Source: Clostridiales bacterium (GTDB lineage Bacteria > Bacillota > Clostridia > Oscillospirales > Oscillospiraceae). From it: a stretch of DNA of 64,000 bases. Position 1 is the first letter of the stretch. Every line of letters starts with the position of its first letter. Of this stretch, positions 33,442 to 59,047 are shown piece by piece. A program made the position numbers and the translations under genes. The stretch covers positions 1 through 64,000 of the forward strand of contig JAQXKZ010000022.1 in assembly GCA_029010715.1 (NCBI GenBank). Direction: 5' to 3'. Under the pieces are notes generated by a model that did no database searches, was not told where the DNA came from, and saw nothing but the letters and a program-made list of their open reading frames with translations.

Positions 33442-33498
33442 AAAAAACAAAAAGGCAATGACGGGCAGAGTTATCCCTCTGCGGCGTCATTGCCCTTT
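33442..33498 (-). promoter_or_regulatory. Leader terminator with ANTAR-like hairpin, upstream of the asnB T-box
   Basis: Directly after the transcription start, GGCAATGACG (33494-33485) pairs with CGTCATTGCC (33463-33454). An inner CAGAG/CTCTG stem-loop and the run TTTTTGTTTTTT follow, making a strong intrinsic terminator placed before the T-box. The 5' arm can instead fold as GGC-AATGAC-GCC, a hairpin with a six-base loop having A at 1 and G at 4, the pattern bound by ANTAR antiterminators. The second small hairpin has loop GGATAA, which does not fit A1/G4. Confidence 0.6.
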
Positions 33499-33508
33499 CG
33501 TTGGCTGT

Positions 33509-33537
33509 ACTATACACCGCCGCACGGGCATTGTCAA
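33509..33537 (-). promoter_or_regulatory. asnB promoter
   Basis: TTGACA (33537-33532) and TATAGT (33514-33509) on the minus strand, 17 bases apart: near-consensus sigma-A. Predicted start about 33502. Confidence 0.8.
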
Positions 33538-33589
33538 CAAAAAGATTCAGAAAATTTGTGAATGCTGCCGGAAAAGGTCTGATGTTTCA

Positions 33590-33619
33590 TTGACAAAGCG
33601 GGGGTGACTGTAGTATTAT
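33590..33619 (+). promoter_or_regulatory. glnA promoter
   Basis: TTGACA (33590-33595), 18-base spacer, TATTAT (33614-33619). It gives a leader of about 155 bases before glnA, divergent from the asnB promoter only 50 bases away. Confidence 0.7.
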
Positions 33620-33641
33620 TCCGCCCAAGGACAGAGCGTAC

Positions 33642-33664
33642 ACAGCCGCCGCGCGGTGTTTTTT
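33642..33664 (+). promoter_or_regulatory. Terminator-like hairpin in the glnA leader
   Basis: ACA-CCGC/GCGG-TGT stem with a bulged G (33642-33659), then six T residues (33659-33664), 20 bases after the predicted start. It suggests attenuation of glnA. No clear ANTAR-type hexaloop hairpin was found next to it. Confidence 0.45.
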
Positions 33665-33779
33665 GAATAAAAACGCGCTGCCCGGCTTATGCTGCGCCGG
33701 AGTAAAAGGCAGACACGGCCGGCCCCGCGCTTTTGCGTACCGGCGGTGTATACGGGATATAAGTTTCGAAAGTTGGTGG

Positions 33780-55742: not shown

Positions 55743-55745
55743 GCG

Positions 55746-56741
55746 ATGTTTGATATAGTTTCCTTTATCCCCAGAGCCGTTATGCAGGGTATACCTCTTC
55801 TTTTCGGCAGCACCGGCGAGACGCTCACCGAGAAGTCCGGCAACCTGAACCTGGGCATCCCCGGCGTCATGTACGTCGGCGGTATCTGCGGCGTTATCGG
55901 CGCGTTCATATACGAGCAGTCGGCCGGATCTGCCGCGGCGATGAACGGCTTTCTCGCCATCATGATCCCGCTGCTCTGCTCCCTTACCGGGTCGCTGCTG
56001 ATGGGCCTGCTCTACTGCTTCCTGACCGTCACCCTTCGCGCAAACCAGAACGTTACCGGCCTCGCCATGACCACCTTCGGCGTCGGCTTCGGCAACTTCT
56101 TCGGCGGCTCGCTCATCAAGCTCACCGGCAGCGAGGTACCCTCTATCGCCCTGTCGGCCACAAGCGCCTATTACAGCCGCTCCCTTCCCGTTGCGGGCAA
56201 GCTCGGCTGGTTCGGCAAGGTTTTCCTGAGCTACGGTTTTCTCGCCTACGCGGCGATTATAATCGCCCTCATCACGGCCTATATCCTGAAACGCACCCGC
56301 GTCGGCCTCCACCTGCGCGCCGTGGGCGAGAGCCCCAACACCGCGGATGCCGCCGGTATCGACGTCGCCAGATACAAGTATATCGCCACCTGCGTCGGCA
56401 GCATGATCGCCGGCCTCGGCGGGCTCTATTACGTCATGGATTATGCCTGCGGCGTCTGGTCCAACGACGCCTTCGGCGACCGCGGCTGGCTTGCCATTGC
56501 GCTCGTCATCTTCACTGTCTGGAAGCCCGACCTCGGCGTCATTTCGTCCATCCTCTTCGGCGGCCTGTACATCCTGTACCTGTTCCTGCCCACCGGCACG
56601 AATCTCGCCGTCAAGGAGCTCTACAAGATGATCCCCTATGTTGTCACCATCATCGTGCTGGTCATCTCCAGCATGCGCGACAAGCGGGAAAATCAGCCCC
56701 CGGCCTCCCTCGGCCTTGCCTACTTCCGTGAAGAACGCTAG
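55746..56741 (+). CDS. Nucleoside ABC transporter permease 2
   Basis: 331-residue BPD_transp_2 permease. Seen: LLFGSTGETLTEKSGNLNLGIPGVMYVGG, a start typical of NupQ-like subunits, LHLRAVGESPNTADAAGIDVARYKYIATCVGSMIAGLGG as the coupling loop, and about nine helices. Three bases after permease 1; last gene of the operon. Confidence 0.93.
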   Translation: MFDIVSFIPRAVMQGIPLLFGSTGETLTEKSGNLNLGIPGVMYVGGICGVIGAFIYEQSAGSAAAMNGFLAIMIPLLCSLTGSLLMGLLYCFLTVTLRANQNVTGLAMTTFGVGFGNFFGGSLIKLTGSEVPSIALSATSAYYSRSLPVAGKLGWFGKVFLSYGFLAYAAIIIALITAYILKRTRVGLHLRAVGESPNTADAAGIDVARYKYIATCVGSMIAGLGGLYYVMDYACGVWSNDAFGDRGWLAIALVIFTVWKPDLGVISSILFGGLYILYLFLPTGTNLAVKELYKMIPYVVTIIVLVISSMRDKRENQPPASLGLAYFREER

Positions 56742-56775
56742 CCCTTTGGCATGAGGGCCCCGTCTGCAAGCTGAA

Positions 56776-56807
56776 AAAGGCTCCGGATCAAACGATCCGG
56801 AGCCTTT
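56776..56807. terminator. Bidirectional terminator (transporter / glnN)
   Basis: A 14-bp perfect stem (56776-56789 with 56794-56807) with loop AAAC, A- and T-flanked, between converging genes. Confidence 0.85.
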
Positions 56808-56828
56808 GCCTTTACACTTTTACACCCC

Positions 56829-58922
56829 TCACTTGACACTGAAGAGGATATCGCCGTAGGAGGGGTAGGGCCAGAACCTTGCCGAGCAGTGCGTCTCCAT
56901 CTCGTCGACGACTATGCGCAGCTCATTCATCGCGGCGAATACGCGGTCCCTGTAGTAACGGGCGAGCTCGAGAGTGTCGCTGATATCCTTGACGCCCATC
57001 ACCGCGTATTCCAGAGACTCCGCCTTCTTCGCGGCCGAGGCGGCCAGAGCACTGAGTCTTGTGGCCAGCTCGGTCTCATAGCTGACGTCAATGCTGTCGC
57101 AGAGCGCCTTCTTTGCGGCGGCTCCCTTCGCGAGCTCGGCGGAGTATGCGCTGGCGGCGGGGAGTATATCCTTCCAGACCATGTCGAGCATGGTCTGCGC
57201 CTCTATGTGCAGTACCTTGCAGTAGTTGTCGAGCTTTATCTCATAGCGTGCGTGCAGCTCGGTTTCGGTGTAGACCTTGTGGCTGGTGAAGAGCCTGACG
57301 TTCTTTTCGCAGAGGTAATAGGGGACGCAGTCAGGAGTGGAGCGCAGATTCAGCAGACCGCGCTTTTCGGATTCCCTGATCCAGCTCTCATCGTAGCCGT
57401 TGCCGTTGAAGATGATCCTCTTGTGCTTATGTATGACGTCCTTGATAAGCGTATGCAGCGCGGCTTCAAAGTCGTCTGCCTTTTCGAGTATGTCGGCGTA
57501 CTGACGCAGGGACTCGGCCACTGCAGTGTTGAGCACGACGTTCGCGCCGGATATGGAGGCGGCGGAGCCGAGCATACGGAACTCGAACTTGTTGCCGGTG
57601 AAGGCAAAGGGAGAGGTCCTGTTGCGGTCGGTGGTATCCTTCGGGAACTTGGGCAGCACGTGTACGCCGACCTTGATAAGCTCCTTTTCCTTGCTGCCGT
57701 AAGGGGTGTCGTTCTCTATCGCGTCGAGTATGCCCTCAAGCTCGTCGCCCACAAACATGGACACGACCGCGGGAGGCGCCTCGTTTGCGCCGAGACGGTG
57801 GTCGTTGCCGGCGGAGGCGACGGAGATGCGGAGCATATCTTGGTAGTCGTCGACGGCCTGAATGACTGCGCAGAGCATCAGCAGGAACTGAGCGTTCTCA
57901 TACGGCGTGTCGCCCGGCTCGAGGAGGTTCACGCCGGTGTTGGTGGTCATTGACCAGTTGTTGTGCTTGCCGCTTCCGTTGACGCCGGCGAAGGGCTTTT
58001 CGTGCAGCAGGCAGACCATGTCGTGCGTCGTGGCTCTCTTCTGCATCAGCTCCAGGGTCAGCTGGTTGTGGTCGGCGGCGATGTTTGTAGTGGTGAAGAT
58101 CGGGGCCAGCTCATGCTGAGCGGGGGCGACCTCGTTGTGTTCGGTCTTTGCCAGCACGCCGAGCTTCCAGAGCTCGTCGTTGAGATCCTTCATAAACTCG
58201 GAAACACGGGTCTTGATGGTGCCAAAGTAATGGTCCTCAAGCTCCTGACCCTTCGGTGGCCTTGCGCCGAATAGGGTGCGGCCTGTGTACATCAGATCCT
58301 TGCGCTTTTCGAAAACGCTCTTGTCGACGAGAAAGTACTCCTGCTCGGGACCGACGGTCGTCTTGACGGAGGTGACGTCGGTGTTGCCGAAGAGCTTCAG
58401 GACTCTGAGTCCCTGCTTGTTGATCGCCTCCATGGAGCGCAGCAGGGGGGTTTTCTTATCCAGAGCCTCGCCGCCGTAGGAGCAGAAAGCCGTCGGTATG
58501 CACAGCACGCTGTCCTTTATAAAGGCATAGGAGGTCGGATCCCACGCGGTGTAGCCGCGGGCCTCAAAGGTCGCGCGCAGACCGCCGGAGGGAAAGCTCG
58601 ATGCGTCGGGCTCGCCCTGTATGAGCTCCTTGCCGGAAAACTCCATTATTACCTTGCCGCCGCCTGTCGGAGAGATGAAGCTGTCGTGCTTCTCGGCGGT
58701 GATTCCGGTCATGGGCTGGAACCAGTGGGTGAAATGGGTTGCGCCCTTCTCTATGGCCCAATCCTTCATCGCGTTGGCGACCACGGTAGCCGCCGCGCTG
58801 TCAAGGCGTTTGCCGTCGTTTATGGAGCGCTGGACCTGCATGAACACGTCCTTTGGCAGACGCGCCCTCATAACGGAATCGTTGAATACGTTGCAGCCGA
58901 AGATATCTGTGACTGTGCTCAT
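56829..58922 (-). CDS. glnN: Glutamine synthetase, type III
   Basis: 697-residue GSIII, the large form found in Bacteroidetes, cyanobacteria and Clostridia. Seen: [88 protein letters not shown] and [19 protein letters not shown], which carry the metal, glutamate and ATP ligands. This is the second, unrelated glutamine synthetase in the window. It has a consensus promoter and a leader terminator resembling that of asnB. Confidence 0.97.
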
Positions 58923-58994
58923 GTTTAAACCTCACTCTTTCTTCTCACGGGACAGACATGCCGGAGAGGCAGTGTGTCTGTTTGCCTCGGAGAT

Positions 58995-59047
58995 AAAAAT
59001 AAAAACCGGCAGAGGTGCCATGCACTCCTGCACGACGCCTTTGCCGT
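58995..59047 (-). promoter_or_regulatory. Leader terminator with ANTAR-like hairpin (glnN)
   Basis: On the minus strand, CGGCA (59046-59042) pairs with TGCCG, enclosing a long imperfect stem, then TTTTTATTTTT (59005-58995). The 5' arm can instead fold as ACGGC-AAAGGC-GTCGT (59047-59032), a 5-bp hairpin with a six-base loop, A at 1 and G at 4. The two folds exclude each other, as in ANTAR-controlled antitermination. A following small hairpin has loop AGGAGT (A1 only). GGCAAAGGCGTCG matches GGCAATGACGCCG in the asnB leader. Confidence 0.62.

What the first reader, a model, noticed from the sequence alone, without database searches (positions are those of the whole stretch)
33442..59047. Shared leader element in asnB and glnN points to an ANTAR antitermination regulon
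The leaders of asnB (33494-33482) and glnN (59045-59033) share GGCAAWGRCGYCG about 9-11 bases after near-perfect sigma-A promoters, although the genes are 25 kb apart and unrelated in sequence. In both, this element is the 5' arm of a terminator with a T-rich tail, and can alternatively form a small hairpin with a six-base A-N-N-G-N-N loop (AATGAC; AAAGGC). Known: ANTAR proteins such as EutV and NasR bind hairpins with hexaloops having A1 and G4 and prevent terminator formation. Inference: the ANTAR protein at 35030-35617 is the antiterminator. The second hairpins in each leader do not fully match the loop rule.
Basis: partly seen in the sequence, partly recalled or inferred. Interest (0 to 1): 0.8.

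Follow-up and report, generated by a model that had tools for sequence, protein, structure and literature searches.

The report
Nitrogen-gene leaders controlled by ANTAR protein
Nitrogen-assimilation genes of this unnamed bacterium and of many relatives start with one tiny RNA hairpin that an RNA-binding protein, encoded beside a glutamine synthetase-like gene, probably holds open so that transcription can continue; the hairpin differs from the known paired form and could show how such switches work.

Summary
The asnB and glnN leaders each carry a hexaloop hairpin (AATGAC; AAAGGC) overlapping an intrinsic terminator. Relatives show the same element with many compensatory changes. In 269 genomes of other families of the order, 121 of 145 with an ANTAR gene have it, against 11 of 124 without. 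By motif, most downstream genes are nitrogen or glutamine genes: glnN, gltB-type, glnA, pyrG, gdhA, asnB, guaA, purF. In this genome it also precedes livK, ilvE and amt.

One hairpin sits near the predicted 5' end; known ANTAR targets are dual hexaloops.

The ANTAR protein has a pseudo-receiver and lies beside a glutamine synthetase-like gene lacking the catalytic Glu flap, a candidate sensor. asnB also has a T-box-like leader behind the element. ANTAR control of clostridial GS/GOGAT genes (NitR) is already in print, so I file this as a new variant.

The parts
33509..33537 (-). asnB promoter TTGACA-17-TATAGT
   Evidence: sequence; score 11/12; within R2 hit, (asnB was in the R2 training set)
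33483..33494 (-). asnB P1 hexaloop hairpin GGC[AATGAC]GCC (3 bp), proposed ANTAR site
   Evidence: R1 E 2.2e-4 (in the training set)
33448..33500 (-). asnB intrinsic terminator; 5' arm contains P1 5' arm and loop (GGCAATGAC with GTCATTGCC at 33462-33454), U-rich tail to 33442
   Evidence: fold -34.4 kcal/mol, z -7.97; alternative fold
33211..33444 (-). T-box-like leader directly behind the terminator; AAC (Asn codon) at 33352-33350 in the presumed specifier loop
   Evidence: Rfam RF00230 65.2 bits, E 5.6e-14, below gathering score 93; codon reading by eye
31582..33168 (-). asnB, asparagine synthase (glutamine-hydrolysing)
   Evidence: Pfam PF00733, PF13537
59062..59090 (-). glnN promoter TTGACA-17-TATAAT
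   Evidence: score 12/12
59032..59047 (-). glnN P1 hexaloop hairpin ACGGC[AAAGGC]GTCGT
   Evidence: R2 E 1.1e-6, (in the training set)
58995..59046 (-). glnN intrinsic terminator (CGGCAAAGG with CCTCTGCCG at 59015-59007) and U-rich tail
   Evidence: fold -26.6 kcal/mol, z -4.49
56829..58922 (-). glnN, type III glutamine synthetase
   Evidence: PF00120 match at C22:57870-58370; protein found in relatives
31449..31527 (-). livK leader: TTGACT-17-TATAAT, P1 TCGC[AAGGGT]GCGA (31490-31477), GAGAC[ATGGAC]GTCTC (31478-31463) at the tip of the terminator
   Evidence: R2 E 0.03, (in the training set)
30149..31372 (-). livK-type substrate-binding protein (Peripla_BP_6)
   Evidence: Pfam PF13458
33780..34994 (+). 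glutamine synthetase-like protein (about 404 aa); Glu-flap PGYEAP reads GGN-KAP, Arg62 equivalent lost, other active-site residues kept
35030..35617 (+). pseudo-receiver + ANTAR protein, proposed antiterminator; Asn59 in place of phospho-Asp
   Evidence: PF03861 47.2 bits
33590..33664 (+). promoter and leader of the glnA-like/ANTAR operon; promoter clear, hexaloop hairpin not recognisable
   Evidence: R2 E 0.0068; sequence

Best explanation
The asnB and glnN leaders are transcription attenuators read by an ANTAR protein, part of a nitrogen regulon found across the order. Transcription starts just before a hairpin of 3-10 bp with a hexaloop R-N-N-G-R-Y closed by a C-G pair. Without the ANTAR protein, the loop and one or both arms of this hairpin are taken up by a far more stable intrinsic terminator and RNA polymerase stops. 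When the ANTAR protein is active it holds the hairpin, the terminator cannot form and the gene is expressed. One hexaloop per terminator serves, unlike the dual hexaloop of known ANTAR targets. The ANTAR protein has a pseudo-receiver, so its input is probably a partner protein; the best candidate is the glutamine synthetase-like protein of its operon (inference). asnB carries a second checkpoint, a T-box-like leader presumably for tRNA-Asn, so it would need both a nitrogen signal and asparagine shortage. Shown by comparison: element, covariation, overlap with the terminator, target genes, association with ANTAR genes, residue losses. Inferred: start sites, binding, direction of the response, sensor.
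For: P1 covariation: 88.5% of cells paired against 34-46% for slid structures; 108 cells changed on both sides against 41.9 shuffled, 0 of 500 reaching it (sequences were collected with a stem of 4 bp or more except asnB). Without any stem requirement: 43 of 49 promoter-anchored sites have 3 or more further pairs against 162 of 1854 others, and 49 of 52 in 29 order-level loci. Among hexaloop hairpins overlapping a terminator behind a promoter, A1/G4 gives 60, G1/G4 24, the other 14 classes 3-11. Closing pair C-G in 54 of 60 A1/G4 cases, not selected for there, against 34 of 116 for other loops; Ramesh 2012 reports that swapping the two loop-closing pairs of a EutV target abolished induction (passage). 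The terminator is the best fold in 72 of 72 and sequesters the loop. Model R2 in 269 genomes outside the family: 121 of 145 ANTAR+ against 11 of 124 ANTAR-; R1 in family genomes outside the first sample: 60 of 162 against 6 of 89. Target genes; in this genome amt is a hit that was not in the training set. ANTAR residues equal to EutV Lys149, Glu160, Met172 kept in 42, 42 and 39 of 43 (roles from passages of PMC8934654). Receiver without phospho-Asp in 40 of 43.
Against: No binding or expression data. The asnB and amt hairpins in this genome have only 3 bp. EutV Arg142 and Arg168 are not kept, and Tyr164 is His in 37 of 43 and Gln in 5, the window protein among them. One covariation measure, the number of pairs with any double-sided change, is no better than shuffles (5 against 4.8; 408 of 500 reach it). 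14 of 109 element-bearing family genomes and 12 of 146 order genomes show no ANTAR domain; G038 among them has a partial orthologue at a contig end, but 9 of the 26 are listed as over 95% complete. 33 ANTAR+ order genomes lack a hit at the cut-off, and within the family the association is weaker. Genomes are related, so the Fisher values overstate independence. The window's own glnA-like/ANTAR leader lacks a recognisable hexaloop hairpin. EutV needs both hexaloops in vivo (passages of PMC3369931 and PMC8934654), so a single hexaloop must work differently or need another factor.
Confidence: 0.85

Rival explanations
1. Canonical dual-hexaloop ANTAR target whose second hairpin is merely divergent (GGATAA in asnB, AGGAGT in glnN).
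For: Both second hairpins can be drawn with six-base loops (for asnB; by eye for glnN); livK has two A1/G4 loops.
Against: Second A1/G4 hexaloop between P1 and the U tract: 6 of 72 against 4.2 expected, 3 of 48 against 2.8 in order-level loci. Second-hairpin apical loops range from 3 to 15 nt. Little room upstream: median 8 nt, range 4-18, from the -10 box to P1 in 54 elements.
Confidence: 0.06
2. The inverted repeat is a DNA operator of a DNA-binding nitrogen regulator (GlnR-like) at the transcription start, and the terminator is incidental.
For: It lies just downstream of strong sigma-A promoters.
Against: The pair next to the closing pair is G-T in 48 of 49 order-level elements and in 17 of 49 family sites, which keeps an RNA stem but breaks a DNA palindrome. 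Loop letters are conserved and asymmetric. The element is followed by a terminator that sequesters the loop and associates with ANTAR genes.
Confidence: 0.04
3. The second ANTAR protein of this genome (contig C21), not the one in the window, reads these leaders.
For: C21 has the stronger ANTAR domain (62.7 bits) and keeps the Lys, Glu and Met positions with His at Tyr164. Genomes G020 and G077 have elements while their ANTAR protein gave a weak match or none to the window protein.
Against: Window-type orthologues sit beside a glutamine synthetase-like gene, and in many loci beside element-bearing glnN, gltB or asnB genes. No such linkage was seen for the C21 copy, next to what look like V-type ATPase genes, but its upstream side is cut by the contig end about 0.4 kb away.
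Confidence: 0.1
4. A metabolite-binding RNA or an unrelated RNA-binding protein controls these terminators.
For: Glutamine riboswitches regulate nitrogen genes in cyanobacteria (abstract of PMC6316151).
Against: In the stretches searched (the window and 14 loci) no Rfam family matched the element; only T-box, tRNA and other riboswitches elsewhere. The conserved part is small for an aptamer; association with ANTAR genes.
Confidence: 0.04

Closest known systems
EutV/NasR/AmiR ANTAR targets (Ramesh 2012, PMC3369931; Walshe 2022, PMC8934654; passages and one section part read)
   Same: Hexaloop with G at position 4 and mostly A at 1, specific loop-closing pairs, hairpin competing with an intrinsic terminator, ANTAR protein, nitrogen genes.
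   Different: One hexaloop instead of two, near the 5' end; G allowed at position 1; the competing hairpin is the first hairpin itself. Those papers describe both hexaloops as needed for EutV in vivo.
NitR of Clostridium saccharobutylicum (Stutz 2007, known here only through a passage of PMC6316151)
   Same: ANTAR antiterminator that induces GS/GOGAT genes on nitrogen limitation in a clostridium.
   Different: The leader motif, its extent and a glutamine synthetase-like partner are not described in the passage I saw; I could not read the original.
AmiC-AmiR (passages) and NasS-NasT (search-listing abstract of PMC3795266)
   Same: ANTAR protein controlled by a ligand-binding partner; AmiR has a pseudo-receiver.
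   Different: Here the neighbour is a glutamine synthetase homologue; no interaction has been shown.
GS-GlnR / GS-TnrA of low-GC Gram-positives (PMC9249791, passages)
   Same: A glutamine synthetase gene forms an operon with the nitrogen regulator (GlnR).
   Different: The regulator here has an RNA-binding instead of a DNA-binding domain, and the GS homologue lacks the Glu flap and Arg62 that form the feedback-inhibited state.
T-box leader RF00230
   Same: Matches the Rfam T-box over the full model in front of asnB.
   Different: Below the gathering score here (65.2 against 93) and placed in series behind another terminator.

Membership tests
ANTAR domain protein (PF03861) | Pfam score above curated cut-off | tested here: met
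   47.2 bits against 27.3
ANTAR domain protein (PF03861) | Hexaloop-contacting residues of EutV (Lys149, Glu160, Tyr164, Arg142, Arg168, Met172) | tested here: inconclusive
   Lys, Glu, Met kept in 42, 42, 39 of 43; Tyr replaced by His or Gln, Arg142 and Arg168 not kept; residue roles from passages of PMC8934654
ANTAR target RNA (dual hexaloop motif of Ramesh 2012) | Two hairpins, each with an A1/G4 hexaloop | tested here: not met
   second hexaloop 6 of 72 against 4.2 expected; 3 of 48 against 2.8
ANTAR target RNA (single hexaloop, minimal motif of Walshe 2022) | Hairpin with hexaloop, G4 conserved | tested here: met
   position 1 is A or G
ANTAR target RNA (single hexaloop, minimal motif of Walshe 2022) | Hairpin excludes an intrinsic terminator | tested here: met
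   72 of 72, (overlap was a selection criterion for nearly all)
ANTAR target RNA (single hexaloop, minimal motif of Walshe 2022) | Occurs with ANTAR genes | tested here: met
   121 of 145 against 11 of 124; weaker within the family
ANTAR target RNA (single hexaloop, minimal motif of Walshe 2022) | Bound by an ANTAR protein | not testable with these tools
   needs purified protein and RNA
Phosphorylated two-component response regulator | Conserved phospho-acceptor Asp | tested here: not met
   Asn59 in the window; Asp in 3 of 43
Glutamine synthetase I enzyme | Catalytic Glu of the E flap (Glu304 of B. subtilis) | tested here: not met
   no Glu in any of 41 ANTAR-linked proteins (Lys 38, Arg 1, Ser 1; L095 does not align there), kept in 5 of 5 comparison enzymes; elsewhere in the order some linked proteins keep Glu
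Glutamine synthetase I enzyme | Other substrate and metal ligands | tested here: met
   39-41 of 41 at eight positions; the list of positions is recalled
T-box leader RF00230 | Score at or above Rfam gathering score | tested here: not met
   65.2 against 93 bits, though E 5.6e-14 over the full model; L081 and L091 have T-box matches above the threshold next to asnB

The most novel reading that the evidence does not exclude
A glutamine synthetase homologue that has lost its catalytic flap acts as a dedicated nitrogen sensor for a pseudo-receiver ANTAR protein, which reads a single 5'-terminal hexaloop on many transcripts. In this order, GS-controlled RNA antitermination would take the place that GS-controlled DNA binding (GlnR/TnrA) has in Bacilli.
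Probability: 0.4. Interest if true: 0.85.

Novelty: new variant of a known kind. Interest (0 to 1): 0.72.

Why it matters
EutV binds one hexaloop at a time yet needs two in vivo, and the 2022 structure paper leaves open why (PMC8934654, passages). A large natural set of single-hexaloop switches makes that question directly testable. It would also describe a nitrogen regulon reaching from glutamine synthetase and glutamate synthase to CTP, GMP, purine and asparagine synthesis in these bacteria; the one clostridial precedent I saw in print is NitR of C. saccharobutylicum. The glutamine synthetase-like neighbour suggests how nitrogen status could be sensed. The asnB leader adds a case of two attenuators in series.

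Tried and rejected
The shared 13-mer as evidence: rejected alone; four of six exact copies in the genome lie without promoter or terminator. A second hexaloop upstream or downstream: tested, at chance. Literature: the listed results (12-20 papers shown of 25-763 matching) held no paper on single-hexaloop ANTAR leaders or on a GS-ANTAR sensor pair as far as titles and abstract starts show; the library holds open-licence papers only, so this is weak evidence of absence. Model R1 own-genome hits below the first two: 18 of 19 have no promoter above 8/12; the exception is the ilvE leader. The G109 hit at E 0.002 was not supported by promoter and hairpin. The idea that flap loss defines every ANTAR-linked glutamine synthetase was rejected: of 32 best-scoring ANTAR loci of the order (own family included), 22 have a GS within 1.5 kb: 7 with Lys (one, L257, already counted), 5 with Glu in a shortened flap, 6 with a canonical PGYEAP flap, 4 other or unread (split read from its rows). 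No structure prediction was run, as it could not show an interaction.
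Full report
WHAT IS THERE. The window belongs to an unnamed 2.0 Mb draft genome; the two named contigs found to hold a relative of the ANTAR protein are metagenome-assembled Clostridia. The asnB and glnN leaders carry the stated 13-mers at the stated places, behind promoters scoring 11/12 and 12/12. Each is the 5' part of a terminator and can instead form a small hairpin with a hexaloop. 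In asnB that hairpin has only three pairs. Directly behind the asnB terminator lies a T-box match over the full Rfam model (E 5.6e-14, 65 bits, below the gathering score of 93), with an AAC codon at 33352-33350 that I read by eye as the specifier. The asnB leader is therefore promoter, hexaloop terminator, T-box-like leader, gene.

RELATIVES. A search of 150 family genomes with the ANTAR protein found matches in 90 at E 0.001 or better; I treat only the stronger ones as orthologues. I fetched 40 of their loci. In 39 of 40 a glutamine synthetase-like gene lies beside the ANTAR gene (in pieces in L093; L092 is cut by the contig end), and many have glnN or asnB nearby. Leaders of glnN showed hairpins such as gagac[AAAGGC]gtctc, aaaggc[AAAGGC]gtcttt and gcgac[AAGGAC]gtcgc directly behind the promoter.

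TESTS AGAINST CHANCE. In 43 sources (575,681 bases) hexaloop hairpins that overlap a terminator and follow a promoter of at least 8/12 have A1/G4 loops in 60 cases, G1/G4 in 24, and 3-11 in each of the other 14 letter classes. Without asking for a stem or terminator, 49 C[ANNGRY]G sites follow a promoter of at least 10/12, and 43 of them have three or more further stem pairs, against 162 of 1854 sites without such a promoter; a few of the 49 are clearly not leaders of this kind. The G1/G4 class contains real members, for example the asnB leader of L058, so position 1 is a purine; this agrees with the report that A1 makes no specific contact in the EutV structure (PMC8934654, passage). In a 65-sequence alignment 88.5% of P1 cells pair, against 34-46% when the partner is slid; 108 cells differ on both sides against a shuffled mean of 41.9, reached by 0 of 500 shuffles. 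The count of pairs with any double-sided change (5) is no better than shuffles (4.8). That alignment was collected with stems of four or more pairs (asnB excepted), so the unselected counts are the cleaner evidence.

ONE HEXALOOP, NOT TWO. Between P1 and the U tract a second A1/G4 hexaloop occurs in 6 of 72 elements, 4.2 being expected from shuffles; apical loops there range from 3 to 15 nt. In order-level loci, collected by score, the figures are 3 of 48 against 2.8. Upstream there is little room: the distance from the -10 box to P1 has a median of 8 nt (range 4-18, n = 54; 14 in both window leaders), so by prediction P1 is the first structure of the transcript. In 72 of 72 elements the best fold is the terminator, which pairs at least three of the six loop bases; forcing P1 costs a median 14.75 kcal/mol. 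The terminator was part of the selection for nearly all of them, so this describes the mechanism more than it tests it. Some leaders have two complete modules in series, each with its own terminator (for example L074, L083). The livK leader of the window is a local case with two A1/G4 loops, the second at the terminator tip.

RNA OR DNA. The second pair is G-T in 17 of 49 family sites and in 48 of 49 order-level elements. That preserves an RNA stem but not a DNA palindrome.

WHO HAS IT. Model R1 (hairpin to U tract) matched 109 of 400 family genomes at E 0.002 or better, and ANTAR domains 252 of 400. In genomes outside the first sample 60 of 162 ANTAR+ and 6 of 89 ANTAR- carry it (one genome, G149, may belong to the first sample). 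Model R2, which includes the promoter, matched 146 of 295 order genomes at E 1e-4, with the best listed scores outside the family. Outside the family 121 of 145 ANTAR+ and 11 of 124 ANTAR- genomes carry it; the training loci came from the family and from the two contigs, whose family I do not know. The genomes are related, so the Fisher values (3.6e-8 and 1e-37) are not to be read as probabilities. Of 26 element-bearing genomes without an ANTAR hit, 9 are listed as over 95% complete. In the window's own genus, the 10 genomes shown split as 2 with both, 2 with ANTAR only and 6 with neither. G004 and G109 of that genus lack ANTAR; G109 has two matches that look like type III glutamine synthetases and G004 one canonical type I, and no element was found in the four stretches of them that I read.

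TARGETS. Of 127 promoter-bearing elements in the 95 sources given, by protein motif in the following 0.9 kb, 44 precede glnN, 40 a gltB-type gene, 9 a glnA-type gene, 6 pyrG, 5 gdhA, 3 asnB, 3 a substrate-binding lipoprotein, 2 guaA, 2 purF, 1 each ilvE, amt and purC; 7 were unclassified (by eye two are glnN, one glnA, one gdhA, three unclear) and 3 had no readable gene. Most loci were chosen near ANTAR genes or by score, so the proportions are biased; the kinds of gene are the point. Gene names here come from motifs I recognised, apart from those. In this genome the promoter model ranks asnB (2.2e-7), glnN (1.1e-6), ilvE (1.1e-5) and amt (5.6e-4) first; livK scores 0.03, and the leader of the glnA-like/ANTAR operon scores 0.0068, from its promoter rather than a visible hexaloop. 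asnB, glnN, ilvE and livK were in the training set, so amt is the independent hit.

THE PROTEIN AND ITS NEIGHBOUR. The receiver domain has lost the phospho-Asp in 40 of 43 and shows no acidic pair (by eye), as in AmiR, which is controlled by its partner AmiC (PMC8934654 and PMC3369936, passages). In the ANTAR domain the counterparts of EutV Lys149, Glu160 and Met172 are kept in 42, 42 and 39 of 43; Tyr164 is His or Gln, and Arg142 and Arg168 are not kept. The neighbouring glutamine synthetase-like protein keeps its substrate and metal ligands in 39-41 of 41 but has no E-flap glutamate in any of 41 (Lys in 38; L095 does not align there) and lacks one residue of the flap; five comparison enzymes keep the Glu. 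Arg62 is also gone in 41 of 41, but three of the five comparison enzymes lack it too. Glu304 is described as catalytic and as part of the feedback-inhibited state with Arg62 (PMC9249791, PMC10799026, passages); the other residue numbers are recalled. Across the order, 22 of 32 best-scoring ANTAR loci have a glutamine synthetase within 1.5 kb: 7 with Lys, 5 with Glu in a shortened flap, 6 canonical, 4 other or unread. The pairing of glutamine synthetase with ANTAR is thus the wider feature, and flap loss is a trait of some lineages. That the neighbour is the sensor is inference.

KNOWN OR NEW. ANTAR control of nitrogen genes, including clostridial GS/GOGAT genes by NitR, is in print (PMC3369931: passages and part 1 of section 10; PMC6316151: passage, citing Stutz 2007, which I could not read). 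The dual hexaloop is described there as the target, with both loops needed for EutV; PMC8934654 (abstract and passages) redefines the minimal binding motif as one hexaloop and asks why two are needed. Among the papers listed by the searches I saw none on a single-hexaloop regulon or a GS-ANTAR sensor pair. I therefore file it as a new variant of a known kind.

Noticed in passing
window 33444-33211 (-): T-box-like leader in series behind the hexaloop terminator of asnB, with a possible Asn specifier codon; T-boxes above threshold also lie beside asnB in L081 and L091.
   Followed up: partly
window 33590-33664 (+): The operon of the GS-like protein and ANTAR has a good promoter and a terminator-like leader, and an AAGGAC hexamer without a supporting stem; relatives have an intact element there (for example L062, L087, L091).
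   Followed up: partly
window 35779-39810 (-): One 1343-codon frame reads as carbamoyl-phosphate synthase large chain followed by a diaminopimelate epimerase-like part (by eye); in L081 only the C-terminal part matches, in L063 only the rest. A fusion, or two genes joined in the draft sequence.
   Followed up: no
G000 C21:9087-9617 (-), L023: Second ANTAR protein next to what look like V-type ATPase genes, also without a phospho-acceptor Asp; its targets are unknown and its upstream side is cut by the contig end.
   Followed up: partly
L072, L074, L075, L076, L078, L082, L083, L091: Two complete hexaloop-terminator modules in series in one leader, tens of bases to about 150 apart.
   Followed up: no
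L177 and L178 (genomes G077, G020): A canonical glutamine synthetase with a G1 hexaloop element in its leader lies beside a shorter ANTAR protein, suggesting an older form of the same pairing.
   Followed up: partly
window 51243-51344 (+): Purine riboswitch upstream of a BMP-type lipoprotein and ABC transporter genes; ordinary.
   Followed up: no
L194 (G000 C40:24010): Weak model hit upstream of what looks like a cas9 gene; probably unrelated to the element.
   Followed up: no
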